A DNA stretch of 64,000 bases from Cenococcum geophilum 1.58 (Eukaryota > Ascomycota > Dothideomycetes > Gloniales > Gloniaceae), in assembly GCA_001692895.1 (NCBI GenBank), contig KV748181.1:2547640-2611639 (forward strand), in the 5' to 3' direction. Of this stretch, positions 10,601 through 62,335 are shown piece after piece (the stretch's first letter is position 1; each line of letters begins with the position of its first letter). The position numbers and the translations under genes were made by a program. The notes beneath the pieces are model-generated. The model was not told the origin of the DNA and made no database searches. It saw nothing but the letters and a program-made list of their open reading frames with translations.

Positions 10601-11850
10601 TATAAAAACAACGTAAAAAGTAATATACCTTAAGGGGGTTTAAACCCTAATTATACTAAGAGAGATTATAGTACCCTTACTAAAACAAATTGTATATTGG
10701 CCTGCCGTTAAATAGTTAATCTAAATAGAGCTATTAAGCTGCTAAAGGGCTTAAACTTAAGGTTCTCCTATTATAGATACTCCTACGGCTCTAGTGTCTG
10801 GTATAATACTATAAAAGATGTTCGCTAAGTATCTGTTATTAAAGGAGAATATAAAACTCTCCCTTAGCTTATTAAAGATATCTAACTTTATAATAGAGTA
10901 GAGCGTAGATTAGTTATTAAGAATAGCGACAGTTTATATGCTATTTACCTTACTATACTTAGTAAAGTACTAATTAGGTAAGTAGTCCTCAATTTCTATA
11001 TCTATAAGGAGCTATTTAACCTTATTAACCTTACCCTTAAAATCTTCTATGCCTTTATATTAAACTAGGAAGCTTTAAAAGTAGGCTATAGTAACCTTAT
11101 AATTTCTAACATTTTTTATACTTTAGCAAAACTTATTATATGCCTCCTTTTGTTTATTAAGAGAATGCCTAGTTAACTAGCAATTTAGTTTCTTATAAAC
11201 ATAGCACTTTTTTTTAGTAATTACTTTGGAATAAACCTCTATAAGGACCTCCATAATTGCCTTATAGTTAACGTTAATTATACCCTTTACCGTATTTTCT
11301 ACCACGGCCACTATATATTTAGTTAGTTTAGTTATAATTATATTAGTTAGGAATACTTAGTTAGGTAGGGTTTTTAGTATAGAACTGTTAAGATTCTTAT
11401 ATTTATATCGTAGTACCTATAGTAAAGCGTAGCTTGGTATATACTCCTTTAAACGTATTTATAGGTTTATATAGCGCTAAATTATACTTAGGAATGCTAT
11501 AGCAGGCTAAGATAACCTAGTCCCTTAGGCTGGATTTATTTTAGTAAGTTTTAGTAAGGCTATATTAGATTTTCTAGAGTTTATTAAAGAGTGGTTAAAG
11601 GCACTCTAAATAAGTCTTTATTAAGTTAGAAGCGATAACTCTTTAAAATATAATCTTTTACTATTTGGATATATAAAGCTAGCGATTTTTATTAATCTTA
11701 AAGTGGGCTCTAGTAAGCTAAAGTATTATATTAAAGCTATAGTTTCTACCCGTAATATAGTTGTAATAAAATATTGCTGCCCGTCCCTTTAATATAATAG
11801 AGAAAGCGTAATAATACTGGTGGCCTTAAATTCTAACTTTATTACAATAG
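7640..11850 (-). pseudogene. copia gag (3' part)-pol, RIP-inactivated
   Basis: Minus-strand polyprotein remnant of copia BC, running from the gag break at about 11850 down through protease, integrase (about 10420-9560), reverse transcriptase (about 9350-8700) and RNase H (about 8170-8040). Every block aligns to the plus-strand copia at 57970-62150; for example, the RNase H end reads as the complement of the segment containing TTATAATCGATATTATAG there. In-frame stops are dense and mainly TAA/TAG. Clusters of N occur at about 9886-9948. The 5' end of gag is missing here because it lies 34 kb away at 45716-46395. Confidence 0.85.
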
Positions 11851-11855
11851 GTATA
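11848..11855. other. left target-site duplication of the Starship-like element
   Basis: TAGGTATA, matching TAGTTATA at 45708-45715 at seven of eight positions. The intact copia has CAGTTATA here, so the first T is a RIP change. The GG/GT mismatch is not RIP-like, so the true duplication may be shorter. Confidence 0.55.
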
Positions 11856-12340
11856 TCTATAAGAGTAGGGCTGCATTAGGAAATGGAGGTTTCCTTTGCG
11901 GGCAACGCGCCCTCGCTTACTGGCCCGCCGCTTTATCCTGGCCTATGCTTTAACCTCTTTACATAAAAGCGTCCTCCACTCGCCGTTTTACTCTCCCTCC
12001 TCTATCTTCTCTTTCCTCCCTAACGCCGCGCACCCCCCTTATTAGATATCATCGCCCCAGCCAAGCTTCCTCGCTCCGCCCCTAAGCCATTTTACTCCCC
12101 CATTAGCGTCCGCGCACATGCAAACCCTACTACTTCCCTTAATTTCCGTGTCTTAGACTAATAGTAGCGTAGCGCCTCTCGGGCTCTCTGACGACTTCCT
12201 CCCTTATACTCTCTTTATAGTAACAGATGAAACGGCTCTTTCTATTCTCGCCGCTGGAGTAGCAATGGCCATTCGTTCTTTCGTAGCCCAACCTTAAGAG
12301 ACTTGTCCCACTTACGCGTGCGGGCATTTACGATATTTAA
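11856..12340. other. left terminal region of the giant element
   Basis: Less AT-rich than the flanking copia. It begins with the imperfect terminal inverted repeat, then a GC-rich stretch with an inverted pair GCGGGC/GCCCGC (about 11898-11934) and CT-rich DNA. A 62-codon minus-strand open stretch (12139-12327) is present but has no recognisable homology and may be fortuitous. Confidence 0.5.
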
Positions 12341-12369
12341 AGCTTTCCCCCCTTCTATTTAGGTTATTC

Positions 12370-13990
12370 CTTCGCCTCTAGGGAGCTACTACCTACAGCT
12401 GCCGATTAACGGGATTTGTAGGAATTACTACGTTAGCAATGCTGCCTGCTTTATTTTTCTAGGAGAGTCCTTCCCAGAGCAATAGCGCCTGGTCCCTCGC
12501 CGCTGTAAGCTCCCTTGTATTACTAGACGGCTCCTAGTTACCTTATATCTTATTTTATTTCAGCTGGCGACCCTGCTTAATTATGCGGACATCCTCTCCC
12601 CAAAATGGGCTGTATGCTATTGGCCCTAAGTACCTTAAGTTATAGAATTTGTAATTTAATCCCTGTCGGCACAGCTATAAATAGCTATAGGACTGTACTA
12701 AGAACCGCCTAGCTATAGATTATACGGGTTACAGCTGCTGTAAGCTGCGGATATATTAGGCAGTATTACATTATAGCGTCACAATAAAGGCAAAGCTGGA
12801 CGCTAAAGTGGGTCCTTAGTAAAACAACTATAGGTTAATGCTAATTACTTAGCTTGGTTAAAGCTGCGCCGCCAGAAGCTAGAAGCCTTTACCCTCCTTA
12901 GCGCCTTCTCCACTTAGACTTGGATCTTACTTTTGCCTAATAATTAGAGGATTAAATTGCAATCAGATAAGCCGCTAGGCTTTAGTCTAATTTAGTCCCC
13001 TATTTAGCTAAGGAGGTACAGGTTATACGGAAACATTCCTTACATGGACCTAAGACTTATAAGGCGGAATCTAGAGGTAAACGGCCTATCCAGTAGCACA
13101 GCCTGGCGTTTAATAGAGTTGGCGTTATAATCTTGCTCTTGGCTAACAAATACTAGAGGAAAATTTGCGTATTTAATCTCCTAACGGAGACGGACTTTAT
13201 GCGGTGGCTGCATTAGCTAAAAGGGCGTAGTAAGATGGATACGGGTGTAATTACTTGATCTACTCGCGCTATCTACCCCCTTATGTTATTTATAACATCC
13301 AGTTATAGGAAAAGGTGAAAGCGAGGCTTTTACGCATATTTGGGAGGTTAAGGAGCGGCTATAAGCTCCGCACTGTAACTAAGGATCCTGGGGAGAGATC
13401 CAAGGATGCCCTTATTACTCGGAGTGTCTTTTAATACTTATAACAAAATCGCGGCATGCCCCCCACCTATTCAACCCTAGGAACCATAGTCTCGCAGAGG
13501 ATCTAGTACGGAAGATCTAGTTTGCCGGTATAATCGGGTTAGAAAACGGATATATTAGCACTAGCCCTAACTCTAAGGAATAAGGGCAGAGGAGGTACTT
13601 TGCCACCAACCTCCTTGATAAGGAGGCTTGGTGCGATACCCCTATTAGAGGCTGAATGTGCTAGCTTAGTTAGTTGGGTCTTAATTATAGTTTCCTAATA
13701 GGCGTTAATCTTATAATAGAGTTTAAGCCCGTATAAACCTTTATGTGTTATGAACGGTAATTGCTAACGGAGCGTAGATTACACGTTTTGATTCGCTATT
13801 AAGCTAGTGGGGTTATTTTAGTATAGATGCTGCGGATATAAGCTGGTGGTAAAGAGGGGACTAGCTTAGACTTAAAAGCCTAGCGTAACCCGTTCTTTAG
13901 AGCTATTAAAAAGGTATAAGGCAATGACAACTCTAATAATAATGGCGGCAGCAACTATGGCATCTTCTTAACCCCTTTATTTTTATTTAG
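12370..13990 (+). pseudogene. unrecognised protein, possibly F-box-like with Cys pairs
   Basis: A single plus-strand frame stays protein-like for about 530 codons. Its interruptions are almost all TAA/TAG where Gln is expected, plus one TGA where Arg (CGA) is likely, typical of one gene hit by RIP. Near 12550-12640 it reads LFQLATLLNYADILSPKWAV, which loosely fits an F-box helix pattern. Later it has LCGGCIS (about 13210) and Leu/Arg-rich helices, and ends in a Ser/Asn/Gly-rich tail near 13930. It is the first cargo gene from the left end and reads toward the element's interior. The F-box idea is weak; treat it as a conserved-looking cargo gene of unknown role. Confidence 0.5.
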
Positions 13991-14014
13991 AAATTTTACT
14001 TAATAATATTAATT

Positions 14015-15596
14015 TTTATACTGCACCCCCTAAAAAACTAAAGGCTTCTTAGTATTATGCGATTATAGCTTTTGAGGCAAATATAAGCAATATACCTAAA
14101 AAGAGGAGGATGAAAAAGGGGAGAGTACCTCGCTTCCCTCTAAGAGATAATCCTGTGAAATATTTAGGCTGGTTGCGCTTAGGTAAGTTATTCCACATTA
14201 CCTTTTTTAAATAATCTACCTAATAAGGCACCCGCAGATCCTAAAGCTTTTAATAAGTATAAAGATATTTACGAGAATGAAAGTAATAGCTAAGACGCTA
14301 GAGGAAGCAATTAAGGTAATTTAGTAATTATTCCCTCCCTCTTTTCCCAACAACTATAAATATATCTAACGGCCAGTAGCGAATCTAATATTTATTAAAG
14401 ATAATACAGCCGACCTAGACTTAGAACCCGAAGCCAAAGGTAATAGAGCTGGCAACACTAGCAATAAAGCTGATAAAGCCAGCGATTAACTAGCATCTTA
14501 TAAGTTAGGTATGCACTTCCCCCCTATACAACGGCCTTACTTAATAATTATTAGGTAACGGAAATGACCGTAGCGATAAGGACGGCGAGGATAAGGAGCT
14601 ACCTTCTTTAGAGGAGCTGGAAGATCTCTTTAGCGCATCTACGTATAACCATCTCAATCCTATAGTAGAAGACGTCAATGAAATGGATAGCCTAGCTAAG
14701 GGAATTGATGTTGCGGCTGTCCCCCAGGCTATATAGAAGTTAGAGACCTATGTGGTGACTAACTAACACTTAATAGCTAATAATGCGGATGATATTGGTA
14801 AGTTACGGATATTAAAAATATCATTACTATAACCTAATAACCATAATATATAGACAATCCGCTTATTAGAAAGGAGGGCAATTATAAGAAAGAAAGCACG
14901 GGAGGCGAATTATCCTTAATACTAAGGAAGCGGAAGCTTAATCAGCTTAAGCGGGACGGCGTTATTAATTATAATTCTAATAACTCTGCTAAAGACAGTA
15001 GCGGGGGTAGTAAGGGCGGTAAGGGTAGTAATAGTCCACGTCCCTAGAAGTAATAAAGGCCACCTACCTCTTGCGAAGACTTGCCTTCTAGTCCTCCTAT
15101 CCCTGTTCTTAACCTTAACTCTTAATGCCTGTAAGTTAACTAGCAAGTAGTATCTACTCCACAGCCTGCCAGCCCTTCGCTTTAGGAGTCTACCCTTCTT
15201 TATAGCATTAAACCACCGCACAATAAGGCTAGTAGTTATATTCATAATGAGGACAAGGATAGTAATAGTGATGGCGTCGCCGACAACTAGAGTAACGTTT
15301 TAAACCTAGAGCCTACTATAAAGCGCCATACCCGGGCTAAAAAAGACAAAATTAATAAAATAAACTTGGGTGATAAATGGGAGATTGACGATATTCTAGG
15401 GGAAAGAATAACTAAGTTAGGGCGCGAATATAAGGTGGCTTGGAAGCCTACCTAGGTTTATAAGGGCGGGCTTTTAAATTCCAAAGATGCCCTTAAGTCT
15501 TACCAAAGACGCGTCCGGCATGCTAAGGTTGGATTACTACAGGTGCACTTTATGAAAGTGAAGGGCAGAGCTGCCGTGCGTAAGGGATGGAGGTAA
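14015..15596 (+). pseudogene. chromodomain protein
   Basis: Plus-strand gene whose C-terminus (about 15370-15530) reads WEIDDILGERITKLGREYKV followed by a Trp and LLNSKDALKSYQRR. This matches a chromodomain, the fold that binds methylated histone tails. The N-terminal part includes a Lys-rich basic segment near 14090-14130 (KKRRMKKGR); the middle is Ser/Asn/Gly/Asp-rich and probably disordered. A candidate ATG lies at 14277, but readable protein begins earlier, so the true start is unclear. The stop is TAA at 15594-15596. Unlike the gypsy chromodomain, it is not preceded by integrase and so looks like a stand-alone cargo gene. Several stops and frame breaks show it is dead. Confidence 0.6.
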
Positions 15597-16180
15597 TAGT
15601 TTAGGATATCCTCGTTCTTAGATAGTGGTGCTCTTTTTAGCTTAAAGGTCTATTTCTAGTTCAGTATTTTTATCCTTAGCGCATTTAGCAGGAGCATCTT
15701 ATAATTTCTAGTCTAATAGATTTAAATTCTTTATACGCTCCACATGATATATAGCGGTGAAACTCTAATTACCGCCCCGCGCAAGCCACATTCTTGCTTA
15801 GCTAGTTACATTATACCACGTTTCTACAGTCTTAATGCCGCTCTAATTAAGAACACTTCGGTATCCCGGCTTATCTCCCCTAGCGGCTTATACGGATTAC
15901 TTTGCATTCTACCTTTTACTTATCCCACATCACTAGTGTGCTAAAAAACGACTGCTGTAAGCCCTACTAAAGGACTAATAAAATGTACCTCTTAGCCTAA
16001 GAGAATTCCAACTAATTTCCAACCAATTTCCACTTAAATCCTCCCTTAAATCCTCCACTTAAATCCCTCCTTTACTATCCAACTTAGAATCTTTTCGGGA
16101 TAACCTCCTTCTCTCCTTAATAAACCTAACACTATAGCATTAATCCAGGTATCGCAACAAAATTAGCACCAACCATTACT
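15597..16180. other. intergenic, no gene seen
   Basis: Contains short CCT/AAATCC-rich tandem-like DNA at about 16025-16075 (repeated TTAAATCCTCC units) and no recognisable coding region on either strand. A 66-codon open stretch at 15744-15944 shows no domain and is probably fortuitous. Confidence 0.45.
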
Positions 16181-16189
16181 AATTGATAG

Positions 16190-18210
16190 CGCTATAACTA
16201 AACTCCTTATAACCACCAAGACAATTAAACTTTGGGAAGGCGTAAAGCCTTATAAGCGTAAACGTATCCAAGAAGCCTTTAACATACTTATAAAGCTAGT
16301 AGAGCCTCCTAGCTTAAAAACAGGCAAGAGGCGGGAGAGCTACCGGCATTTCCTAAGGAGGATTAACAATGACTGTGGTCCTTAAATGGTAATAATTAGT
16401 GCTATTGGGCTCGGGCAATTAACTATTATAAGTATAAGGGAGTATGATAGACTCCGCCTCCCTTTAGAGATTAAGGAAAATAAAAAAGCCTTAGAATCCC
16501 CAATTCTTTAAATGTTAGCAGAGGAATATACCATAAAAGGTTAAAAAGTCCCGCTTTAATAATACCCAATAGCTAACCGAACTAGTCCCATTAAGTATAT
16601 ACGGTACTACAGAAAACTAAACAGCTATTGCTATGCGGGCGTCTTAACAGACCGCGGATACTCCACTGCCACAGCCTACGAAATTGGATCAGTCAGCTGC
16701 GCTAAAGCTAAGCTCTCCAGACACACGCAAGCAACCTTACACTAAGCATTTAGAGGCCTTTAATCCTATACCTCTATCAGGCGTTACTAAATCTAAGGAA
16801 GGATATAAAGAACAATAGCTTTAGGGCGAGCAGTTAAGTATATAAGATGTTCCTTGTTAGGCAAATATTTACTGCTAACTAATATTTGCCTTAAACTCAT
16901 TTTCTGGGCGGGTCTTCCAGCTAACATTATAAGACGTTTAAGCTATTATTATGTCTAACTAAGTCTGGGGTAAAGTACGGTTAACAGAACTATACCAAAA
17001 CCACTCATTTCCATTTATGATGATAGCTATCTTAAAGGCAATATGCGACTACTTTAGTGAACAACATTACCGTCTTATGTAAGGTATCCATATGCAAATA
17101 TAAAATTAGCCTATTTCTTTACGGCATATTTAATTTTAATGGCCCTAAGGGAACGGTAGTACTATCCGGCTTCCTATAACAATATTACTAATCTGTTACC
17201 ATTCTTACTGTCTTCCATCTTAACTATGCTAATAAAAATATTTCCCCATTTGTTATCCGATTTCTAATAGATATTAAGAGAGCCACCAACGCTGGAGATA
17301 TTAATAACGACGGCTATAGTGTTTTTAGGTGGGGAGGTCTAATATATAGTTTTAGTGGAGGGGCCAGACTCGATTTGGCACTCATCGCAATTTAGCTACT
17401 TAAAAATTAGTTTATAACACGATTATTTTTGACCAGACTATAAAGAGAAACCTACCTTTGTCTTATATATTTCTATAAGTTCGCTATTTATTAAAGACTT
17501 CGATGCCTTAATTATACGCACTATATCCTAGTCGGTAATGCGCTCTACGCTTCCTAGTTAGCCAAAAGTAATCGAGTGCCCCTAGGGATATTACAGCGCG
17601 GGAGTTAGAGATATGGCCGAATATCCAAAATACAAAAGGTGAGGATATTTAAGGAGTTTGGATCTTGCGCGAGAATAAGAGCTCTATAGATGTAAGTATG
17701 TAAAATGTCGTAAATTTTCTATAGCCCTAATATGCTCCGAATTCGCTAGATGGTATATAGCTACGTCTATAACTACGCCTAGATTTACTAGCCCTCGGTA
17801 CCATCCTATAAAGGGATATATATATTATGTTAGTGAAAATTATAGCAGTGCTGCCTAATAACTGGTAAGATTGCCTTACGCCTGTCTGATTGCGGCATAG
17901 TGGGGCATTAGCTCATGCATATATAATATAGAAAGTTGCCTACCTAAACTAAGCATGGTTACTAAGCCACACTTTAGGCACATGAGACTCCGCCTATTAG
18001 TTAGGCACTTATTGGAAGAGAAAGTGCGATTTAAATACGCATATATAAGCAAAAAAGAGGATTAACCGCTTTGCTCTCCTTAAGAAATAGTTTTCTAGAT
18101 ATAGTCACTTGTAAAACTAGCTTCACCTCTAACCGCGTAGCTGAGATTTTAGCCCGCCTCGCTTGGGAGTCACTTTACCTAACTAAGTTAAGTAAATGCT
18201 CTTACCCTTA
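16190..18210 (+). pseudogene. large cargo protein of unknown family (~660 codons)
   Basis: One plus-strand frame reads as protein for about 2 kb, with interruptions nearly all TAA/TAG/TGA at plausible Gln, Arg or Trp codons. It starts LITTKTIKLWEGVKPYKRKR, has a Tyr-rich segment YRKLNSYCYAGVLTDRGYS near 16610, several hydrophobic stretches (around 16860-16920 and 17110-17230), and a late segment EEKVRFKYAYISKKED near 18040. I do not recognise the family. The length and lack of frame breaks suggest a genuine single-exon gene. The hydrophobic stretches could be membrane segments or buried helices. Confidence 0.55.
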
Positions 18211-18309
18211 TATAATTACTCTGTCAGTTATAGGGCCCGCTATTAGCACTAATAGTTAAGGGCCAGTCTTGGCACCTAGGCGTTTCGCCCACTAAAATAG
18301 AATGCCTAA

Positions 18310-18880
18310 ATTAGTAAGGGGCAGGTTTTAGTCGCTCTTCAAAGGAGGGTTTTCCGGCTACAAAAAACAAGCATTTAAAGTAATAATGTTACGGCATACC
18401 TGGCGATAATGCCCCTTTAAATGAATTGAACAAAAGTCATATTGCGCATTTAGCTGTAACGGGGGGGATAATCTATTAAGCACCGCTGTGCCATTACTAA
18501 GTCACATCTAGGAGCTTCTTAAGGCCTGTAGTATATCCAAATTCCATGTCTTAATGTCTCCTATCCTTCCTATAATATTTTCTTGGTAAATATCTCTTAG
18601 TAGGTCTTACCCTAATTAAGGTTAAGTAGCATCTCCTTTAAACATCGAACTTTCTCCAGATTGTTATAAGCGTTATAGTGATTAATAAGGTTTTGGAGAG
18701 CCTTATCTTCTTTATTATCCATTATTAACCTATGGTCTTTAAAATGAGAGTAAATAATATCGCGTTATCTTTTAAATTCCTTCTTCTAGTCGTCGCTAAT
18801 TTCACTCTATTTTAGCGTTAGAAGCTAAATTAGTTGCAATATATAAAGCTATAAAAACTTATATATAAAGGCTGGTAATC
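18310..18880 (-). pseudogene. unrecognised protein fragment, minus strand
   Basis: A minus-strand frame of about 180 codons reads through with stops only at likely Gln positions. Segments include HYNAYNNLEKVRCLKEMLLN, then QGKTYQEIF, HGIWIYY and CDLVMAQRCLIDYPPV. The charged, helical N-terminal half suggests a coiled or DNA-binding protein. It converges on the large plus-strand gene ending near 18210. Family unknown. Confidence 0.45.
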
Positions 18881-19800
18881 GTTTTATATATTATATATAG
18901 AACATATTACTAGGGATACGATTTTATAGATGTTAGAAACGCTAGGGGAGTGTTCTTAGAGCCAAGTGTATGACTGTCTTTAATTAACCGTATGCTATAT
19001 CCTCGACCTTAACTCGGACAAATTAAAAGACTAAAAATATTAAAGAGCGAAGAGATTCGTGCGAAAGTATGCGTAGGTCTAAAATCGGAGGCTTTAAATA
19101 ACCTAGAAAACGAGAATGGAACGCTAATTGCCTGCAAAAAAATTTATTAGCGGGCTATTGCAGGCATAGAGGCGTTCGGATAGCTGAGCTAGTAAGTACT
19201 AGAGTGCTAGGGAGACAAATCAGCCGCTTGTTTAATGCTTTTCTAGCAGGGATCCAGCTAGAGGTATAGAGAGGCGGTAATTGCATTGTATATACACATG
19301 CACGGCCATCTATTGTGCTCCGCCTCACCTTTGGCATTTGGGAATCGTTAGAGAACCATTGGAAAACCATTAGAAAACCACCGGAATAATACTAAAATCG
19401 AGTTGGGAGGCCATTAGTAGTTAAAGCGACTACTTAAACCCGTCTCCTTGCAACGGCGCCTTGCATTAATTATGCCTTCTATAATTAGATTAGGCGATGT
19501 CTTTTTTTTAAGCTTACTCTAGTGCTGGAGCTGAGATCCCATATGCAAGCCAATAAGTATGTACACTATAGCTTTATTCACCACAACGGAGACGATATTA
19601 ACGTGTATCAATTAAAGCCTACTAGGATTAATTAGGGAAGGTAGCCTATTACTAGAAGAGAGGTGCAGACATACCTATAGCACAGCTTATATTGTATAAG
19701 AAAATGGCGGATCTGGCCCAAAAAACAATACTATTTAGCTCCTCTTTCCACTTAGCTCTTTCTTCAGATTAGTATTACATTACTAAAGCTTTATAGAGCA
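18881..19800. other. intergenic region with short direct repeats
   Basis: No domain recognised. At about 19348-19382 a unit of about 13 bp (AGAACCATTGGAA / AAACCATTAG / AAACCACCGG) repeats three times. A 71-codon minus-strand open stretch over 19155-19370 has no recognisable homology and spans these repeats. Confidence 0.4.
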
Positions 19801-19803
19801 ATA

Positions 19804-26960: not shown

Positions 26961-26967
26961 TTTTCTT

Positions 26968-27780: not shown

Positions 27781-27784
27781 ATTA

Positions 27785-30260: not shown

Positions 30261-30329
30261 TAAATCCGTTAAGATCCTGGCTGTATATTTAGAGGACGCT
30301 ACACCCGACTACCTAGCTTGCTATTTTCA

Positions 30330-32790: not shown

Positions 32791-32799
32791 GCGTCTTAC

Positions 32800-33400: not shown

Positions 33401-33424
33401 TAAACGCGGCCACTATAATTCGCT

Positions 33425-36440: not shown

Positions 36441-36446
36441 TTAAAT

Positions 36447-37370
36447 ATGCCTAGAATAGAAGAGTATTATATGCTCTTTAAAACGTCTGAAACTGGCTAT
36501 AACAAAATAGCTAGAGTCTTTCCTAACGCTTGGGGAAAAGAACAGTTTAAATTTATTAAAGTAGGTTATAAATCTAGGTAATTTCTAATAAATCTTAAGC
36601 TTTATAGGTTTTAAAATAGATCGGTTTCCGCTATAATCTACCTACTAAACCTAAGTACGCTTAAGTCCTAATACATTTTCGCATTAGTAGGATTAAAAAG
36701 CAGTTATATACTCTATTAGAAGTAGTAGGGCTAATACAAGGTAGGGAGCAAATTGTAGAAGATATAAACGCGGCAAAATTAAAGGTTAAACAGTTAAAGT
36801 TGCTAGAGGGGTCTCCTAGTGACTTAGAAAAGAGTAACATAGAAGAGGGTTTATGTGCTCTAGGCTTTAAGATATAGTTTAACTGTATGGAATATCCGTA
36901 GTATATGTTATATATCTGGGAAAACCTGCTATTTAGCTACTAGATTATTAATTCTCGTTTTAAATAGCATTGATTTCTCCCATTTCACTTTCTTCTTACT
37001 CCCTATATTTTTAGAATTAAAGTCTACTATGCCCCCGCCTTGTTAGTGCTGCTAGCTGTCCACTATACTTTAGCCCGTTACTAATACCACGGTTAGAAAA
37101 CCTTCTTTAGGGAATTTATTTACTAAGGGAATTATTATAAAGTTCTTACATTTTTGGGTGTAGTTGAGAAGATAAATAGTAGAAAAGAAATCCTGTAATA
37201 GATAGAGCGTAAGATATAGGATAATAGAAATCATAATATAAGGTATAGTATAGAAGAGGACCGGGATAAAAATGGGGATATATATAAGGACGTATATAGG
37301 GAGGATATAGTCGCCGGGATTAAGGCTTTGGGGATTAATTTAAAGAAGAATGTGTCTCTCTGCTAGTAAC
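36447..37370 (+). pseudogene. small unrecognised cargo protein with coiled segment
   Basis: ATG at 36447 opens MPRIEEYYMLFKTSETGYNK and continues IARVFPNAWGKEQFKFIKVG. After about 36570 the good frame shifts by one. From about 36670 it reads RIKKQLYTLLEVVGLIQ, a Lys/Glu-rich helix with EDINAAKLKVKQLKLLEG, then LLTPYIFRIKVYYAPALLVL and an acidic end YSIEEDRDKNGDIYKDVYRE before TAG at about 37368. Combined size is about 300 residues. The helix pattern suggests a coiled coil. No family assignment. Confidence 0.45.
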
Positions 37371-37980
37371 TATTCCTTCCATAAATAGTATAGTGAAGGC
37401 TATTATATAACGTTTTCGCATTTCTATGTATAATTGTGGCGTACCAATTTATACCTCCCCCTATGCTACGCAATTACACTCGTGGCTGGCTAAGCTAGGC
37501 TTCTCTACTTATAATAGGTTAGCCTTCTATGTTCTGTAAGCACACTCGGTCTTACCCTTTACTGATCTTTTACTACCTATAGCAAGGCTGGAACAGGCGT
37601 CTTCTTATATTTATACCGTCTAGTAAGTCGTATTTAGGCCTGCCTTTATGTATTCTATGCCGTTTGTAGCCTAACTTAAATCTACGTACTTTCTCATTGC
37701 TCTAGTAAGAACTGCTACGTAATTTAACCTTGCTAATACGCATATACTGCCTCTGCTAGGGTTTTATTAATTAATATATAAATAGGCCTTTAAGACCTTT
37801 ATAGACCTCTAAAGGCCTCTAATGACCTTTAAAGACCGGCGATAACTTACCTACTAAGGCAAGCAGCATGTAACCTGCCCCTTCTATATCTTTAGTAATC
37901 TAATCGCTACTCTTAGGTACCTATCGTCGTGATAAATACGTTTAATAGAAGCTAAAAGTCAGCCTATTAGGTTCCAAAGT
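37371..37980. other. intergenic, minor repeats
   Basis: At about 37780-37840 a unit of about 15 bp around GACCTTTAAAGACC/GACCTCTAAAGGCC repeats four times. No gene recognised. Confidence 0.4.
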
Positions 37981-37984
37981 TAGG

Positions 37985-38511
37985 AGAAGAGATTTCTGAG
38001 GAGGATAAAAAACGAGATATTACCTTTATGGGATGGGAAGAAGGCGATTTACGTAAAGCAAAAGTAAGTAATTACCTATATTATAAGTAGCAGGTCCCTA
38101 ATATCTTAAAGATTTATAAGATTATTGGCATTCTGTATACTTAACCTAATATTTGCCGGGCTGTAGGTCCGATATATAATATAATTATTTAAATAACTTT
38201 GGTTGTGCCACATTACCGTAGTGGCAGATTAGTTATAGCGGAAATTAATTATAATGGAATATTAATGAGGTCTAATTGCTTTTTTGGCGATGTATAGTTT
38301 ATAGAAGGTGGAAAGAAAGCTTTAGAACAATTGGATGAAGAGGTAAAGGAACTTAATAATGCCAACTAGACTGCTGCGCCTTCCTTTTTAGTTAGATTGG
38401 CGTACTTTGCTACCCCAATACTTGCGATAGCTTTGGTACTTCTATATAGGGAATAGTTAAGTTTATATAGAGGAACTACGCTGCTTAAATTGCTTGATTT
38501 CGTTCGAAGAA
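37985..38511 (+). pseudogene. small protein with C-terminal membrane segment
   Basis: A continuous plus frame of about 175 codons ending at TAA 38509-38511. It reads GEEISEEDKKRDITFMGWEE, VPNILKIYKIIGILYT, YRSGRLVIAEINYNGILMRS and EGGKKALEQLDEEVKELNNA, then a hydrophobic stretch FLVRLAYFATPILAIALVLL that should span a membrane. Five or six stops sit at likely Gln positions. The start is unclear. Role unknown; probably a tail-anchored protein. Confidence 0.45.
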
Positions 38512-39290
38512 TATAAGATCTCATGCGGCTTACATAATGGTCTAGCGATTTGCTATTATTCTATAACTAAGCCTAAAGCCCTTATGCCTTTACGTTCGCC
38601 TATACTTATAACCCCCACTAAAATTAAACCCCCCTCTCTACGCTCTCTTCTCCCGGCCTTGCTAAAATACCTAGTGTAAATGTACTTCTTTCGTAATAAA
38701 GATAGAAAGGCTATATGGAAGTGGTCTTTTAAAACCCAATGCTTAATTTTTATAAACTGTATAAGTATAGCTAATCTTATAAGCTAGGTAATCGTGTGGG
38801 CTGTATTAGCATATAGTTAAGAAAAAAGTGGAATAGTGTAATTGGTGGGCCGGTATGTAGGAACATAATACTATTTAACTTTGCTTAATGTGGCTTAGAG
38901 GAGTGTAGAGCCTTAACCTAAGCCACAGGAACACGTCCTCTAACTAAGCCTCTATTATATAACCACTAACTACTTCTAGGCGCTGCGGCCGCCGCATACC
39001 CCGCCACTTACCCTTCCTGGAACTTTAGAAGTTATATTAGTCCTTAGTTAAGCGACTGACGTTTAAAGCTCTAACTAACTAGCTAAATCTGTCGCAGATT
39101 AGATAAAGCTAACGATGACTTCTTAATGTATATATAGAGGCTTTAGAGCCACGTTTAATAAAGCAGAGTTCTTATTCTTAATTGTCCTGTTTGATACCAA
39201 ATCACTCCCTTAAACATTGCTCGAGACGTAGTTGAAACTAGAGAAATATACTATCTAAGAGTGTTCCGTTCGGCTTAGTGTAGCTTATAA
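38512..39290. other. intergenic with a ~90-bp sequence repeated at 42049
   Basis: Bases 38683-38771 (with CTTCTTTCGTAATAAAGATA) recur in the same orientation at 42049-42134. At about 38893-38925 the inverted pair TGTGGCTTA/TAAGCCACA frames a short loop. A NotI-like GCGGCCGC at about 38986 marks a GC-rich patch. No gene recognised; the 61-codon open stretch at 38494-38679 is probably fortuitous. Confidence 0.45.
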
Positions 39291-39295
39291 ATAGC

Positions 39296-40250
39296 GAGAA
39301 ATATAGCGACTTAAAACTTGTATGCTAGGGGCTGGAGTTTAAAGTCTATAAAGCGATTATATGCACCTAATCTCCTGTACTTACAGCTGCCTGTAATAGA
39401 GGCTTTTAGGTAAAAGCTAACTAAATGTCTAGTGGAATTAACCCTAACTAACCAACTAACGGGTAGGAGGTGGTGACTAATATTATAAATATCAACGAGT
39501 TCGATTCCGGCACCGTTAAGAGGATAATCTAATTTATATATAAGAGGGACTATAAAAATGGCAAGGAGGAGCAAGGATCTAATATTGATGACGCCGATGC
39601 CTCATTACTATCTAAACTAGATAATAGCGGTGGCGATAATAAAGACATAACGATACGGCCGACGACGGCCTATATTATACTTTATCACGTCCATATTAAT
39701 ATAATTGCCGATTACTACGATATACTATAGCTAAAAGAGCTTATGAATATAAAAATCCAATACATTCTAGGAACCAGCTAGTCCGTAAACAGGTTTTCTA
39801 ATGTTGTTAAGGATGTCTTTAGCCTGATAGGCGACTTAGTATTATATAATATAATTACCTTAACAGCGGCCAAGCACATCAAAGAGCTTGTTAAACTTAG
39901 GGACTTTATAGAGCTGGACGTTATAAGTGATTTCGCCATCAGCATTATACGGACAGCGATTACCGTATCTAAGGATATAGAGGAAAATTTTATGCTAAAA
40001 CTTTAAGCTGTCTAATCTCAGCTATAATAAACAGAATTACTGCTTTAATCCGCCAAGGTGAGGTATGTCGCGGCTGAGCGTAAAAGCAAAAACATTAATA
40101 ACTGTCTTAATACCCTCTGCACGACCAGGACCTGTTATAATATTGGTTATAGAGCCGAGTTTACATATTACATTAAGGATAGTAGTTATCTATCCGACCC
40201 TAATCACCCTTATATACTTCGTTGCAAAAGGTATAAGCGTTATGTATAAG
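39296..40250 (+). pseudogene. BTB/POZ-domain protein
   Basis: Fungal BTB protein, a protein-interaction domain often found in E3 ligase adaptors or transcription regulators. It opens KYSDLKLVC; later FDSGTVKRII*FIYKRDY matches the BTB pattern that ends in YLYTGDY. After an Asp/Ser-rich insert, HVHINIIADYYDIL*LKEL gives the following helix and FSNVVKDVFSLIGD continues the C-terminal helical part. The tail has a Cys-rich segment (NTLCTTRTC, YILRCKRYKRY) seen in many fungal BTB proteins. Stops are CAG-to-TAG types. A short frame on the opposite strand (39311-39574) is a shadow. Confidence 0.75.
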
Positions 40251-40384
40251 TAAAGATACATAGCTTAGGAGATCGGCTTAGGTAGGAAGTCATTATATTG
40301 TTTAGGTTGATCTAAGAAATTCGAATGTATATCTCGTCTATAGTCGATCCGTCAGATATTGTATAGTAACTGTATTATCTATCT

Positions 40385-40505
40385 CCCATTAGCCTCCCTT
40401 TACCTTACCCCTTACCCTTTACCCCTTACCCCTTACCCCACCCTTTATCTTATCCTTTACCTCACCCTCACCTTTACCCTCACTTATTACCCCTTACCCC
40501 CTAGA
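40385..40505. repeat. C-rich tract of CCCCTTA/CCCTTTAC units
   Basis: Degenerate tandem units CCCCTTA, CCCTTTAC and CCTCACC. It resembles telomeric DNA only loosely (the usual fungal unit is CCCTAA). The truncated FunK1 copy begins just after it. Confidence 0.7.
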
Positions 40506-40526
40506 CGAATTACAAAATCCTAGTCA

Positions 40527-41500
40527 TTGCATTGTTATTAAAGACTTGTGGCAGTACCCGGAGCGTAAGGAAGAAGGCAAACTGCTATGTAAGATGTTGG
40601 AGGAGGAAGTGGTTAACGTGGCCAGGTACTATCACTATAAGACTGTTTGTATAAATAGACAAAATAATAATATCTATAATATCCGTAAGGGGCTAGATAT
40701 TATAAAAGCGATAAAATATAAGCTAGAAGGCTTAATAATGCCTTTAAAACCGGCTGGAGTATAAATCAGTATAAGAAAAGGCCAAAGTTTTAGCAGAAAG
40801 AGATCTTCTAGCTACACTAATATCCTATTGCCGCCTAGTAAGCGTACGTGTTTGGGTTCTCTACCTAAAGGCGGAAAGCGCCTTGTAACCCTAAATTAAG
40901 TATATTAACGCGTTATTAGGGACTATAGAAAGCCTCTTTATAAGGCAAGCTTTTAGGCTACAATACTTACTGTATTAGAGGGTGGCATTAAAGGATATAA
41001 GTCTTTATATATGCGGGCCGGCATTATCTAATATAACATTTTAATAGGCAACCTTATAATGAACAAGGAAGACAATAATCCTTTTTAGCTAGCATTCTTA
41101 ATTAACTTTAATCTTGCGATTAAGGAGCAGCGAGAAGGGCCTTTAGGAGCGCGGGGTAAGACTAGCATAAGAGCGTTTATGGCGATTAGAGTACTCCTAG
41201 GCGAGATATATTTAGCTTGGTATAATTTTAAGTCGTTTTTTTAGGTGCTATTTTAGATATGCATTTACTATAATAGACCTAATAGAAAAGGTAACGTTGT
41301 TAATAGGTTTAATAAGTGGAATTCTGTAGATATGGAAGAGTTAGCTAAGATAAAGAAAGGAGAAGTGGATAATAAAGGGGATTTTCTTAAGGGTGCAGGT
41401 AATAACTTTTCGCCGTACTATTAGCCACTAATCCCTTAGGTTAACAGATTACGGAAGGTGGTATTTCTAGGCGGTGGGAGGCGAAAGGGAAATAATAAAA
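40527..41500 (+). pseudogene. FunK1-type kinase, copy B, N-terminally truncated
   Basis: Homologous to copy A (23205-25170) but starting at the equivalent of LVIKD, so the N-terminal half is absent. It reads WQYPERKEEGKLL, EVVNVARYYHYK and KGLDIIKAIKYK, a basic linker SRKRSS, IGNLIMNKEDNNPF, LINFNLAIKEQREG (the metal-binding Asp now Asn) and LGARGKTS, then NRLRKVVF near 41450. Starting abruptly after the C-rich tract suggests it arose by duplication of part of copy A or a shared source. Like copy A, it cannot be active. Confidence 0.8.
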
Positions 41501-41589
41501 AACTTCCTTTTTAAATAAAGGAGGTGCTTTGGGAAGCAAGGAAGGATCTAAAGGTGCTAGCAGAGTAGATAGAATAATATTTTATTGCT

Positions 41590-41858
41590 CTTCCACTGTA
41601 TAAGTGAAGTTTTACAGAGATTTGGGCGGCTAAGGCTAGGTAGTAGCCTTAGTTAAAACGTATGTAAAACAGTATAGGGCGAGTCGCCTGGGCTAAATAA
41701 ACCTGGGAAAGAATAACATTTCATTTTCCTATGTTCTTCCACTACACGGGTTAAAGTTTTGCGGGGATTTAGGCGGCTAAGGCTAGGTAGTAGCCTTGGT
41801 TAAAACGCATGTAAAACAGCATAAGGCGAGTTGCCTAGGCTAAATAAACCTAGGAAAG
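41590..41858. repeat. tandem duplication of the FunK1 3' flank
   Basis: Two copies of about 122 bp (41590-41711 and 41736-41858), both with GGCGGCTAAGGCTAGGTAG and GTAAAACAG, spaced 146 bp start to start. Copy A has only one. The unit ends in a CCTGGGAAAG/CCTAGGAAAG motif. Confidence 0.8.
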
Positions 41859-42048
41859 CGGATAACCCAATTATTTATAAAGATTTAAAGAAGGACGAAG
41901 CGAATCTGCTATGGCCTTTATGTCTTTATAGCTAGAACTAAACTTATTAGCCTTCTTATTATAATAAAACGCTATTGTCCTTACTATAGATATGTAAAGC
42001 AGAACTAGAATGTGTAATAATAGGACGCCTTACGCTTTAAATAGAGTA

Positions 42049-42134
42049 TACTTCTTTCGTAATAAAGATAGAAATGCTACCTAAAATTAGTCTTTAAAAC
42101 TTAATGCTTAATTTTATAAACTGTTTGAGTATGG
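42049..42134. repeat. second copy of the 38683-38771 repeat
   Basis: Direct repeat of about 86 bp containing CTTCTTTCGTAATAAAGATA and AATGCTTAATTTT. The pair brackets the BTB gene and FunK1 copy B. Confidence 0.7.
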
Positions 42135-42149
42135 CTTTTAAAGTATAAA

Positions 42150-42665
42150 ACGCCATTTAATATTATATAGCTTTCCTTACACATTAAATAGCTGTAGGGA
42201 ATTTTTGTATCTAATAAGATAACGCCTAGCACAGCCCGCGATTTTATAATCTCTGCCCGCCTAAAGTTAATTATTATCGCCTGGCTAATCTTTATATTCT
42301 AAAGTATATTATAGGGTATTATATCTTAGTGTAACACTCCTAGCCAATATACGGCCTAAATTAAGTGCTTAACCTGTTTAGTTAGGTATTGCCTATTATC
42401 GCCGTTAATACGTTAAGAGATAAACTTGCCCCTAAAACTAAGGAACCTTATATAAATAATCTCTATAATACCGTTATAGAAATACGGACGGCCAAATTAA
42501 TATTTCCTAGATGTACCGGTATATAGATCCCTTGAATTGGACAGAGGCGCTTATAGATAGTAGCCTCCTGCTTTAGGTGGCTGGGTAAAAAGGGGTAAGC
42601 TAGGTAACATTTATAAACTTTAGGAATCTTATTAGGAACGTAATTAAGAATATTAGATGGACAGT
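42150..42665 (-). pseudogene. protein-kinase-like fragment, minus strand
   Basis: Minus-strand remnant of a fungal kinase-like family distinct from FunK1. It reads EATIYKRLCPIQGIYIPVHL, matching the lineage's ETxVYxxL...GxxxPVxLG segment. After a frame change come GVLH*DIIPYNIL, where the catalytic loop HxD is still visible, and QAIIINFRRAEII, where the DFG-equivalent Asp reads Asn. It ends near VILLDTKI. The N-lobe start is missing or unreadable. It lies just downstream of the captain gene and in the same orientation. Confidence 0.6.
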
Positions 42666-42709
42666 CTATAGGTATTAATGAGATACTCTATATACATTAT
42701 ATGTATATC

Positions 42710-45190
42710 TCTTAAAATGCATTATACCCTCTATTTACGTGGAACATTCGGGATAGCAACATTTAAACTCTTTTTAATAGTTGGGTAGTCGAAAGTAGGT
42801 ATCCACGTGCTTCTTTAGGACGTCTTTTCGCGGTATATAGCGCATCCGTTTTTTATATAAGAACTTATTATTGCCTATGTAAATAAGGCATACTAGGTAG
42901 GGAAGCTTTATAGGATATAACTAAATAGTCTTGGCTTTAGCGGCGTCTAAAGTGCCAAGCTCTTATTAAATAGTCCCATAATCTTTATTATCTGGTAACT
43001 CTTCCTTTAGGGACGCATGACCGGGAGTTTAGTAATTTAAGGTACTCTTAAGACTAATATCCTTTCGCTTTTATACATAAGATGTCTTCTCGCCTTTAAA
43101 GACAACAAAGTCTATTTTCTTCCGTTTTAAAGGTTTGCGTCAAGCCGTTTCTTATTAATAACGTAGTCGAGCTAGGTTTTTGATGAACTTAACTTAGGCT
43201 TTTTTATTTTTAAAAGGTGTAAAGAGCATTCTAGTAATAGTAGCCCGCTCCCGAAGTTTAAATTCCACCCTTAGCAGTGTTAATACCTTAGTTAGGCCCT
43301 TCCCACTAAGCTGCCTAGCTATCTTGATCGTGTTAATTAAGTCGTAGAATTCGCGAATAGTGGTCATTAATTGTTTCCTCTGCAATCTTTAATATGTTAT
43401 ACCAATCTTCCGCTTGGTCTCTTTATATTGCTAGTATAATTTAGTGCCTTTGGCCTTAGTAACGGGGTAGAGGCCTTCACCGTAGATATGGTTCTTATAT
43501 TCTTCTCATTTATTACAAAGTGCTTTAAGCTTAGGGTTGTTGCGGACTTCTTCTAGCTGGTCGTTATTAAGCTCTATAGGCGCTCGTTAATCTCGTAATA
43601 GCCCCATTCTCGCGATAGATTTAATGAGGAGATTTTATAAAGGACTTCCAAAATAGATACTCTGGTAATCGCGTGCAATATGCGTTGGTATATAATACCT
43701 CTTGTATATACTACTAAGATGGCCCATGGTCTGGTTCCGCTCTTCCGGAGTAATAGTGTCTATCTATATAATTAATATATAACTAAGTCTAGAGGTAATT
43801 ATTAAGCGGACCTACCGTTAATGTTTTTACCTAAAGCCTGTCGTAGCTGGTACAGCTCTAGTGCCTCCTTAAACCTAGCAATAAGCCCTAGGCGTACGAA
43901 TATGTCACGGTATTTGGCGTATGGAAAGGCCTTTTCTTTTATAATATTGCCATCCCTAGTTATATGGCTGACGTCGTAGAAGAATGGCTGATCTAGTACT
44001 TTGTTCTTCCATTTAACATATAGCACGTTGCGGTGCGCCGGTACCTTAAGGTTAAAGATGTCTTAAACACTCGTAAAGTTATCTAGGAATGCGTCTTAAC
44101 TAACGCTGACGGCTAAGATATGCGAAATAATACAGAACGCAGGAAGGTCTTTAAAACGGAAGGTAAATTTCTTTCTATAGATTTACAGTTAGTAGGATAT
44201 ATTATTTACACACAGCATAAAGCTTACGGTTTACTATTCTTTTCTTTATTCTTAATATGTTCCAGATTCACATTCACTATAATTGTGCTCTTATTAGAGC
44301 GTTTCTCGCTGCGAATAACTATAACGTTAATATTCTTAAACCAGACGGCTTTATTGCTGCCTTTAGCACTAGCGCTTTCCACCAGAGCGCCTGGTCTTGT
44401 AGCTATAGCTACGCTAAGTAGAAGAAGAAGCAAAATTTGGACTCTAATAAAGCTATAGAGTGGCTTAGTATCGTTAATCTAGAGAGCGTAAAGGATAGTA
44501 TAAAGGTCTTAGACGAACATAGCGTACTTTTCCTTTACCGACTTGTTAAGCCCAAGGCTTAGGATCCACTTCCACAGCTATTAGTCTGCCTTAAAGGAGG
44601 GGTGGGAACTTACATTATAAATATCATTAAGGATATTACCGTCCATCTTATGGCGTGTAAGGTCTATATAGCACATACTAATTCGTTTCCAATAGCTCCA
44701 CATTACGCTCTCCTTCTTAATTTAAAAATGTTTCTTCCGCCAGCGGAGATATACTTTAAATACCTTTAGGGCGCATTCACGCAGCTAGTCGTCTAGGGTT
44801 TTTTAGGTTTTCTTTTTAATCTTTAGGTAGTACCTAGTTTGCAGTAATTAGAGGGTATAATAACAAGTTAGCGGGAATTTTATAATTTACCTCTCCCAGA
44901 TTTCGCCTTCCCTCTTTTATAGTTTCTTGGTATAAGGAGTATGGTTCGGTTTTACAGGTCCCTCCTCTTCTAATTCAGCAATGTCTTTTAGTATTTCCTC
45001 AGCTTTAGAGTCCAATTCCACGTCTAATCCCGTATCTAACTCCGCATCTAATTCCGCATCTAATTCCGCATTTAATTCCGTGTCTGGTTCCGTATCTAGT
45101 CCTCTAGAATCTAAATCTATACTATCTTCTAAACGAATATATGTATCTAGATCGGTGTCTATGTTCGAGTCTAGACTTTAGAGTTGTAAA
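42710..45190 (-). pseudogene. DUF3435 tyrosine recombinase (Starship captain)
   Basis: Captain-type tyrosine recombinase that would cut and paste the whole element. On the minus strand the N-terminus (about 45180-44990) is an acidic repeat TELNAELDAELDAELD. An LRWRKKHF-like helix lies near 44740. Box I reads AIATRPGALVESASAKGSN with its Arg codon at 44395-44397. Then come MLYVKWKNKVLDQPFFYDV and FKEALELYQLRQALGKNIN (second Arg at 43841-43843). After a 56-nt intron, ITPEERNQTMGHLSSIYKRY supplies the His (43719-43721) and candidate Tyr codons (43692-43697). The C-terminus carries a zinc-finger-like segment with CCYPECST and KKHVDTYFRL near 42760. Stops and frame breaks show RIP death. It lies about 0.5 kb inside the right end and points inward, the standard captain position. 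Confidence 0.88.
43760..43815 (-). other. 56-nt spliceosomal intron in the captain gene
   Basis: Minus strand: starts GTAGGT directly after AACG and ends ATAG before ACACTATTAC. Removing it joins GKNIN to DTITPEERNQTMGH in frame across the recombinase box II, exactly as the family requires. Length and splice sites are typical of ascomycete introns. Confidence 0.75.
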
Positions 45191-45707
45191 TTTAAGTTTC
45201 AATAAACGGCGGCGGCGTAGGGCGCTCCTCTCCTCTCTGTCCTATGGGCCGGAGCAGCTACTTTAATAGGTGTACTACCATTTTGGCAACGGCGAGTTTG
45301 CCGAATAGGTAAGGTAAGTATTACAAATAAGGATTAAATTGCCAGAGAGAAAGTGGACTAAGGATGGTAAAGGGAGAGAGAGAGGAAGTAGAACAAGGGT
45401 AGTAAAGGGAGATAGTGCGGGGATAGGGCGAGCAGGCCATTTCTTTAAGTAGACGCTGGCCTTTCCACCTAGGCTGTGCCGTTGTTAAATTAACGTAAGC
45501 GCCGACGAGCTTTATTAAAGCTTGTGTCCCGTTTCTAACCCTCTAGAATAATAGGGCGGGATATAATAGGGATGGGAAGTGCTTAAGCGAATAGAGCTTC
45601 TTTAAAGCGGTAATGTGATAGGGTTTAAGCGAGGTGAGAACGCCGCCAAAAGCGGCGGCTAACAACCTCTAAAAACAGATGCAATCCCACCACTATATGT
45701 ATTTAAC
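45191..45707. other. right terminal region of the giant element (captain upstream)
   Basis: About 0.5 kb between the captain start and the element end, expected to hold the captain promoter and recombinase binding sites. It contains a purine-rich patch (about 45350-45420) and a GC hairpin GCCGCC/GGCGGC at 45642-45659. The end itself carries the imperfect terminal inverted repeat GATGCAATCCCACC. No promoter motif can be assigned with confidence. Confidence 0.5.
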
Positions 45708-45715
45708 TAGTTATA
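45708..45715. other. right target-site duplication of the Starship-like element
   Basis: TAGTTATA, followed directly by copia gag sequence TAAAAGACC as in the intact copia. It pairs with 11848-11855. Confidence 0.55.
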
Positions 45716-46844: not shown

Positions 46845-46849
46845 GTTAC

Positions 46850-62330: not shown

Positions 62331-62335
62331 ATCAG

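What the first reader, a model, noticed from the sequence alone, without database searches (positions are those of the whole stretch)
11848..45715. A RIP-degraded ~34-kb Starship-like giant transposon with its captain recombinase
The sequence directly shows a 33.9-kb foreign block splitting a copia element, an inward-facing tyrosine recombinase of the DUF3435 family about 0.5 kb from one end, a near-perfect 8-bp flanking duplication and weak terminal inverted repeats. Established knowledge: DUF3435 captains sit at the 5' end of Starships and mobilise large cargo in Pezizomycotina. Inference: this is a fossil Starship in the 5'-right orientation.
Basis: partly seen in the sequence, partly recalled or inferred. 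Interest (0 to 1): 0.95.

Follow-up and report, generated by a model that had tools for sequence, protein, structure and literature searches.

The report
Chimeric, multi-copy, RIP-killed Starship giant transposon
This 34-kb block is a dead copy of a giant fungal "Starship" transposon that carries cargo matching that of a differently driven Starship, occurs at several places in the same genome, and was mutated by the fungus's repeat defence.

Summary
It aligns end to end with a second copy on another contig (33,871 bp, 91% identity), has a DUF3435 captain at its right (5') end facing inward, and splits an LTR retrotransposon that keeps its own GTTAC duplication. Of 3,034 substitutions between the two copies, 3,032 are transitions, so they were almost identical before RIP.

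The 8-bp repeat is not a decayed duplication. In 4 of 4 empty sites found, the captain-side copy is the target's sequence and the far copy the element's AGGTATA, as reported for the Starship Sanctuary. Terminal inverted repeats are not supported.

The element is chimeric. Cargo 31.4-40.5 kb differs from a D-captain Starship by 4 transversions in 9,051 bp, while captains A and D share 72 of 167 residues. The junction at 40532/40534 is intact in 3 of 40 scored places, so the hybrid probably moved. Three captain lineages match 19, at least 40 and at least 40 places. Cargo swapping is known; the readable junction in a multi-locus hybrid is the addition.

The parts
11849..45715 (-). Starship, subfamily A1 (element plus the target-derived core at its right end); 5'/captain end on the right
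   Evidence: end-to-end match to G000:C47, 33,871 bp, 91%; family ends at 19 right and 19 left places
11848..11855 (.). captain-distal (3') direct repeat TAGGTATA; the AGGTATA core belongs to the element
   Evidence: AGGTATA exact in 17 of 19 left ends; differs from the empty-site core in 4 of 4 sites
45708..45715 (.). captain-side (5') direct repeat TAGTTATA; the AGTTATA core comes from the target
   Evidence: equals the core of the empty LTR-element site; variable in other copies, exact AGGTATA in only 4 of 19
43197..45174 (-). captain: DUF3435 tyrosine recombinase in three reading-frame pieces (45174-44227, 44176-43805, 43790-43197), 18 stops; true start codon and introns not determined
   Evidence: PF11917 positions 3-83 (below cut-off), 94-210, 214-394; coordinates and stops
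41872..45715 (-). captain cassette (3.84 kb); the part from 41872 to about 44.8 kb was compared in C50 and C83 and is shared although their neighbouring cargo differs
   Evidence: matches begin at window 41871/41873 in C50 and C83, 3.3 and 4.2 transversions per kb
40534..41871 (.). arm 2: inverted extra copy of the FunK1-kinase segment between cargo and captain cassette
   Evidence: IR I2/I6/I9; 0 transversions in 557 bp to the arm of a D-type element (C13), 15 in 1,175 bp to arm 1
40532..40534 (.). chimeric junction: cargo on the left, arm 2 on the right; in D elements the D captain lies right of this point
   Evidence: read through intact in 3 of 40 scored places (window, C7, C47; 331 candidates); C45, C97, C22 diverge at 40528-40532
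18429..40532 (.). cargo block largely shared with other-captain lineages (D and B); 19.2-22.6 kb was not compared with them as DNA
   Evidence: 31445-40528 vs C45: 4 transversions in 9,051 bp; 22940-24300 in 40 of 40 scored places (190 candidates); 18429-19210, 27.8-30.1 and 39.0-40.5 kb in two B elements, 23.1-25.9 kb in a third
11849..18235 (.). A-type captain-distal module
   Evidence: 16000-18235 found in A1 copies and a few further places; sharing widens beyond 18235
20648..20938 (+). cargo gene with DUF7025 (PF22942), one TAA inside
   Evidence: E 3.0e-23; stop-free piece 20744-21109 E 1.2e-12
23899..24234 (-). arm 1, FunK1-type fungal protein kinase fragment
   Evidence: PF17667 E 1.7e-9
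40528..40710 (+). arm 2, FunK1-type fungal protein kinase fragment
   Evidence: PF17667 E 2.5e-13 in window:40393-40761, residues 46-106
15291..15452 (+). possible chromodomain fragment near the 3' end (weak)
   Evidence: PF00385 E 0.0038, 17.6 bits against a cut-off of 25.1; longer piece E 0.011, 16.1 bits
7164..11848 (.). left half of the LTR retrotransposon that the Starship split (duplication GTTAC at 7159-7163)
45716..46844 (.). right half of the same LTR retrotransposon (duplication GTTAC at 46845-46849)
56748..62724 (.). uninterrupted relative of the split retrotransposon, used as the empty site (core at 57969-57975)
63024..63030 (.). empty site of another family copy (C93): core AGTAATA

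Best explanation
It is a RIP-inactivated Starship in a large fungal genome, and a chimera. Shown: the element has fixed ends, a DUF3435 captain at its 5' end, and inserts at AG-N-T-A-T-A-like sites (ATWHCT read from the captain side). In the four empty sites found the captain-side repeat is the target's own sequence and the distal repeat AGGTATA is the element's. Also shown: its interior (31.4-40.5 kb) is nearly the same, RIP aside, as the cargo of a Starship driven by another captain (lineage D), joined at 40532/40534 to an inverted kinase segment and then to the lineage-A captain cassette; that junction is found at three loci. Inferred: captain A excised the element as a circle or equivalent by recombination at the core and inserted it by exchange at the captain-side edge of the core. 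An exchange between an A and a D element, by end-joining or template switching at breaks with little homology, gave the hybrid. Captain A then moved the hybrid to at least three places, and RIP mutated the copies.
For: Same ends at independent loci. PF11917 over three captain pieces. Four empty sites with one polarity: window copy, C93, C63, C7, although C63 needs two transitions in the core; a fifth, C3, has only its right flank and agrees after one transition. Window vs C47: 3,032 of 3,034 substitutions are transitions, CA the commonest context (1,803 of 3,032), and one of the two transversions lies beside the attachment core at 45705. Cargo vs C45: 4 transversions in 9,051 bp, none of them in 39.0-40.5 kb, whereas same-captain C83 has 8 in 1,197 bp at 39.0-40.2 kb and C50 and C83 differ by 35 and 48 per kb in the 23.3-25.9 kb module. 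The D captain (read in C97; C45 is 91% identical there) lies where the hybrid has arm 2 and captain A: 72 of 167 residues identical to captain A, no blastn match to the window. Of 40 scored D captains, 19 have an arm-1 match on the same strand at 17.5-64 kb. The junction is intact in 3 of 40 scored places: window, C7 and C47.
Against: No allelic empty site was available; the empty sites are paralogous repeats in the same genome. Captain family was not placed on a reference tree. The first captain piece scores below the curated cut-off. The accessory genes named for Starships (NLR, patatin-like, ferric reductase, DUF3723) were not seen among the 89 block pieces scanned (of 96 of 52 or more residues), which may be RIP or small size. 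Most of the window-C45 comparison (31.4-39.0 kb) covers cargo absent from C50 and C83, so only 39.0-40.2 kb compares like with like. Not all cargo modules are far from C50 and C83: 18.5-22.6 kb has 6.0 and 26.7-29.3 kb 4.7 transversions per kb to C83. The direction D to A, and recombination instead of old nesting plus deletion, are inferred. C7 was checked by ends and three internal stretches, not read whole. Left core deviates in 2 of 19 ends (C70, C1).
Confidence: 0.85

Rival explanations
1. Nesting instead of exchange: a D (or B) Starship inserted inside an A Starship, and a later deletion or inversion removed the D captain end and left arm 2 as a scar. The element is a Starship either way, but no captain/cargo exchange between separate elements is needed.
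For: Nested Starships are reported (passages of PMC12289983). The cargo edges at 40532 and about 18.4 kb are sharp. Arms 1 and 2 form an inverted repeat that could promote rearrangement.
Against: No captain remnant of D or B was found in the window with the sequences held; the D ends were not read. Cargo modules have mixed affinities (window vs other elements 0.44 to 48 transversions per kb), which a single nesting does not readily give. Arm 2 matches a D-type arm better than arm 1.
Confidence: 0.35
2. The three hybrid copies arose by segmental duplication of one locus, not by transposition.
For: Copies were almost identical before RIP.
Against: Similarity ends at the cores. Among the held flanks only a few repeat matches were seen, and C70 with C28 is the one pair sharing a left flank up to the core. 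C7 and the window copy have empty sites in different repeat families.
Confidence: 0.03
3. It is a Crypton-like or other tyrosine-recombinase element, not a Starship.
For: DUF3435 genes also occur outside Starships (Hill et al., passages), and the usual accessory genes were not seen.
Against: 33.9 kb with cargo, captain first and inward, repeats that match the published Sanctuary Starship: ATWHCT in 17 of 19 and ATACCT in 17 of 19.
Confidence: 0.05

Closest known systems
Sanctuary Starship of Bipolaris sorokiniana (PMC12506042; passages and section 9 read)
   Same: 5' repeat is target sequence with consensus ATWHCT and 3' repeat is constant ATACCT. In canonical orientation ours are ATWHCT in 17 of 19 and ATACCT in 17 of 19. 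DUF3435 captain about 350 bp from the edge there, about 0.54 kb here. Conserved first 3.8 kb with captain there, 3.84-kb captain cassette here. Little similarity between short haplotypes in the middle. A chromodomain gene in the conserved 3' end there, only a weak hit here.
   Different: Here 19 near-full-length right ends in one genome, differing mostly by transitions, with cargo of another lineage. No sequence comparison with Sanctuary's captain was possible. None of the Pfam hits obtained here names a toxin or effector gene.
Inter-Starship cargo swapping (Urquhart et al. 2024, PMC11623301; passages read)
   Same: near-identical cargo under unrelated captains, inferred to come from recombination between elements
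   Different: There seen between species, for a formaldehyde-resistance cluster. Here within one genome, with the junction read and found at three loci.
Starships with the same cargo but different captain families (Gluck-Thaler and Vogan 2024, not read, as cited in Hill et al. 2025, PMC12134995; outline and passages read)
   Same: the pattern that led Hill et al. to ask whether captains can be swapped
   Different: In Hill et al.'s own cases the boundaries were uncertain. Here both A ends, four empty sites and the internal junction are defined.
RIP-degraded multi-copy Starships (mentioned in PMC12153272, passages and section 6 read, and PMC11623301, passages)
   Same: RIP on duplicated Starships
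   Different: Here RIP-blind distances separate subfamilies and show 2 transversions in 33.9 kb between two copies.

Membership tests
Starship | DUF3435 tyrosine recombinase (captain) | tested here: met
   PF11917 over three pieces, two above the curated cut-off;
[quoted passage not shown]
   captain frame starts about 0.54 kb inside the right end, minus strand
Starship | short direct repeats from target-site recombination | tested here: met
   core AG-N-T-A-T-A-like at both ends; 19 left and 19 right ends
Starship | empty insertion site | tested here: met
   4 empty sites, all in paralogous repeats, none allelic
Starship | same element with exact ends at two or more loci | tested here: met
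   window vs C47 end to end; other ends
Starship | large size with cargo genes (17-625 kb in Verticillium; about 20-700 kb) | tested here: met
   33.9 kb; DUF7025 and FunK1 kinase fragments
Starship | accessory genes DUF3723, NLR, patatin-like, ferric reductase (common, not obligatory) | tested here: inconclusive
   none among 89 of 96 stop-free block pieces; RIP could hide them; family-specific searches not run
Starship | terminal inverted repeats (in 18 of 20 A. fumigatus Starships; not obligatory) | tested here: not met
   24 of 500 shuffles reach the best score, match not terminal
Sanctuary-like Starship (same captain family) | 5' repeat ATWHCT from target, 3' repeat ATACCT constant | tested here: met
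   17 of 19 and 17 of 19
Sanctuary-like Starship (same captain family) | captain protein clusters with Sanctuary captains | not testable with these tools
   no reference captain sequences at hand; no PDB chain matched one captain piece
Sanctuary-like Starship (same captain family) | chromodomain gene in the conserved 3' end | tested here: inconclusive
   PF00385 E 0.0038 and 0.011, below the curated cut-off

The most novel reading that the evidence does not exclude
In this genome Starships trade captains and cargo routinely. The captain cassette (about 3.8 kb) and cargo modules behave as separate parts, hybrids stay mobile under the new captain, and RIP freezes the intermediate forms so that transversion counts give the order of exchanges. 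The captain-side end also carries 2-3 hypervariable bases between element and core that do not simply copy the target in any of 4 sites, as if the element brought a short coupling sequence from its last home, like the conjugative transposon Tn916 (recalled comparison).
Probability: 0.35. Interest if true: 0.8.

Novelty: new variant of a known kind. Interest (0 to 1): 0.66.

Why it matters
Whether Starships can change captains is posed as an open question by Hill et al. 2025 (passage read). One genome with 19, at least 40 and at least 40 places of three captain lineages, shared cargo, readable junctions and a RIP-blind clock makes that question testable by computation alone. It also gives 19 left and 19 right ends for one captain, enough to describe its target and the polarity of strand exchange. 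And it suggests that RIP did not keep a 34-kb element from spreading, but disabled the copies afterwards (inference).

Tried and rejected
Weak terminal inverted repeats: tested and rejected. A separate TIR transposon of 18.8 kb inside the block (from the 1.2-kb inverted repeat): considered and dropped, because the arms carry a kinase fragment, arm 2 and arm 1 are of different origin, and the shared block ends at 40532, before arm 2. A second captain inside the window: none found with the captain loci held. Copia domain in the retroelement: 65 of 70 pieces scanned, none. Solved structure of a captain relative: none for one piece. Long DNA queries gave little, because only 2 and 4 of 735 and 956 candidates were scored. 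Organism: not identified. Genome size 177.2 Mb resembles the recalled size of Cenococcum geophilum, but nothing was tested, and one paper search for Cenococcum with Starship gave a single paper, whose passages make no such link. FunK1 with Starship and captain: no paper in the library. Rows dropped before counts: of 20 left-end loci the C15 one is truncated and was left out; fragmentary matches were not counted as ends. C44 (left end) is in the core count but not in the distance table. In one search, 7 of 96 block pieces and 3 of 21 retroelement pieces were left out, 5 of 70. Pairing of ends for elements of 80-196 kb is by nearest same-orientation end and was not verified by reading the interior.
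Full report
What was checked first. The window is G000:C6:2547640-2611639 of a 177.19-Mb, 162-contig genome; PF11917 (DUF3435) matches 165 times there, with 100 of 346 candidates scored. The match in this window lies at 43218-43754 on the minus strand (E 2.9e-26). Read as three pieces with X at stops, the captain covers profile positions 3-83 (20 bits, below the cut-off of 25.8), 94-210 and 214-394. It has 18 stops in 638 codons: 12 TAA, 5 TAG, 1 TGA.

Boundaries. The window aligns to contig C47 from 11848 to 45715 in one piece: 33,871 bp, 91.0% identity, 13 gap columns. The right-end query found 43 matches, 19 of them near full length, and the left-end query 42, 20 of them covering most of the query (each with 40 candidates scored, of 40 and 82). 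The matches stop at the same few bases on each side. Nineteen left and nineteen right ends were aligned; one further left locus, C15, is truncated and was dropped. Thirteen left/right pairs can be drawn by nearest same-orientation end, the window included. Four others span 33.9 (C47), 33.9 (C7), 35.2 (C50) and 42.6 kb (C83). The remaining eight span 80-196 kb and were not read inside, so those pairings are tentative.

Host element and age order. The split retroelement has LTRs from 7164 and to 46844 and its own GTTAC duplication on both outer sides. An uninterrupted relative at 56748-62724, with GTTAT duplications, reads across the insertion point. So the LTR element inserted first and the Starship later. 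The retroelement halves show stronger RIP indices (1.37 and 1.57) than the block (0.66-0.91), which fits that order but does not prove it. A copia domain was not found in 65 of the relative's 70 stop-free pieces, so the superfamily name stays open.

RIP and a RIP-blind clock. Between the window copy and C47, 3,032 of 3,034 substitutions are transitions; the C context is CA 1,803, CG 780, CT 307, CC 142, against a background in which CT is commonest. The two transversions are at 29078 and 45705, the latter beside the attachment core. The copies were therefore practically identical when they parted. On left ends, the window, C47, C7, C50 and C83 differ by 0 transversions over 851-853 bp, while the other 13 left ends compared differ from the window by 7-17; on right ends, which include the variable core, the same five differ by 0-3 among themselves and the other 14 by 5-9 from the window.

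How it inserts. The flanking repeat is TAGGTATA/TAGTTATA. The captain-distal core is AGGTATA in 17 of 19 ends; the captain-side core is AGGTATA in 4 of 19 and otherwise varies. Four empty sites were found as paralogous repeats: the LTR element for the window copy, window 63024 for C93, a repeat upstream of a B element for C63, and a repeat family with 3,030 candidate places (40 scored, all 40 spanning the join) for C7. Three of those 40 were read: two have an ungapped AGGGATA, the third a 2-base gap in the core. In all four sites the captain-side core is the target's and the distal core is the element's; C63 needs two transitions. A fifth copy, C3, has only its right flank in a held sequence (inside the A1 element near window 14345) and agrees after one transition. 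Hence the mismatch in the repeat is original, not decay. In canonical orientation the captain-side repeat fits ATWHCT in 17 of 19 (not in C7 and C9) and the distal one is ATACCT in 17 of 19 (not in C70 and C1). These are the 5' and 3' repeats reported for Sanctuary (section 9 of PMC12506042), whose authors suggest that the 3' repeat may travel with the element. The polarity is thus a confirmation with more sites, not a discovery. Two to three bases just outside the captain-side core vary among copies that are otherwise the same and do not simply copy the target in any of the four sites; I read this, weakly, as a possible coupling sequence.

Cargo. Recognisable pieces are a DUF7025 gene (20648-20938, E 3.0e-23), two FunK1-type kinase fragments in inverted arms and a doubtful chromodomain near the 3' end, below its curated cut-off. 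The 107 stop-free pieces scanned (89 of 96 from the block, 18 of 21 from the retroelement) gave nothing else convincing; a Desmo_N match at E 0.004 lies in the captain region and is taken as chance. Tandem arrays with 17-bp and 81-bp spacing occur at 22673-22956, 29698-30244 and 34714-35037.

The chimera. Interior pieces recur far from A ends. Elements with a different captain, lineage D (C45, C97, C22), carry the cargo up to window 40528-40532 and then a different captain. Cargo 31445-40528 differs from C45 by 828 transitions and 4 transversions in 9,051 aligned bases. Yet the D captain, read in C97, shares 72 of 167 residues with captain A, and the DNA beyond the junction in C45, C97 and C22 gives no blastn match to the window. 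Of 40 scored D captains (122 candidates), 19 have an arm-1 match (40 scored of 190 candidates) on the same contig and strand at 17.5-64 kb, four of them at 17.5-17.8 kb, the spacing seen here. By contrast the same-captain copies C50 and C83 differ from the window by 3.3 and 4.2 transversions per kb in the captain cassette but 35 and 48 per kb at 23.3-25.9 kb; other shared modules give 4.7-8.9, and 22 per kb for C50 at 26.7-29.6 kb. Where the comparison is like for like, at 39.0-40.2 kb, C83 has 8 transversions in 1,197 bp and C45 none. Two B elements differ from the window by 2.6-3.8 per kb (L071) and 7.1 per kb (L066) in the modules they share. The junction at 40532/40534 is read through intact by 3 of 40 scored places (331 candidates): the window, C7 and C47. 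Arm 2, between that junction and the captain cassette at 41872, has 0 transversions in 557 bp to a D-type arm and 15 in 1,175 bp to arm 1. The cassette edge at 41871/41873 is shared by C50 and C83, which have other cargo beside it. The simplest reading is that the hybrid formed once and moved to at least three loci under captain A. That the cargo came from D to A is inferred from its frequency among D captains.

Scale. Captain D DNA matches 40 places (40 of 122 candidates scored) and captain B 40 (40 of 114); both are lower bounds. The 5' ends of three B copies begin in TTTAC, reminiscent of the TTAC(N7)A target of Hephaestus (the target is quoted); this was not followed up.

Known and new. 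Multi-copy Starships, RIP on them, nesting, and cargo swapping are in print (passages or sections of PMC12153272, PMC11623301, PMC12289983, PMC12134995). Hill et al. ask in print whether captains can be swapped. My paper searches cover one open-access library only, so absence there means little. I file the element as a Starship and, by its repeats, as Sanctuary-like in target choice, with captain family untested.

Noticed in passing
G000:C65:401694, C12:3048955, C5:283487 (L071, L072, L066): A second captain lineage (B), 40 places scored, whose 5' ends in three copies begin in TTTACTCTATTAA and fit the published Hephaestus target TTAC(N7)A; its elements carry shuffled pieces of the same cargo.
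   Followed up: partly
G000:C40:476553-477458 (L041): The left end of an A copy abuts an inverted 70-bp copy of its own left end, as if the element had inserted at the end of another copy.
   Followed up: partly
G000:C3:5469175 (L053) vs window 13975-14345: The right flank of one A copy matches the inside of the A1 element at 81%, which suggests one Starship inserted in another.
   Followed up: partly
L036 and L059 (C70 and C28): Two A copies share about 570 bp of left flank at 86%: two insertions at the same spot of a repeat, or a duplicated insertion.
   Followed up: no
L056 (C1:3209159): A left end that is 7 transversions from subfamily A1 and 3-5 from A2, while A1 and A2 differ by 12-13: looks recombinant.
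   Followed up: no
G000:C49:752543-753905 (L001, L005): One of the least RIP-damaged DUF3435 genes listed, one stop in the first part and none in the second.
   Followed up: no
window 22673-22956 and 29698-30244: Arrays of 17-bp tandem repeats in the cargo; similar arrays appear in the B elements L071 and L072.
   Followed up: no
genome-wide, PF22942: DUF7025 has 129 matches; 20 have no stop, some of them in frames of 600-970 residues that may be host genes, and several broken ones lie beside Starship cargo.
   Followed up: partly
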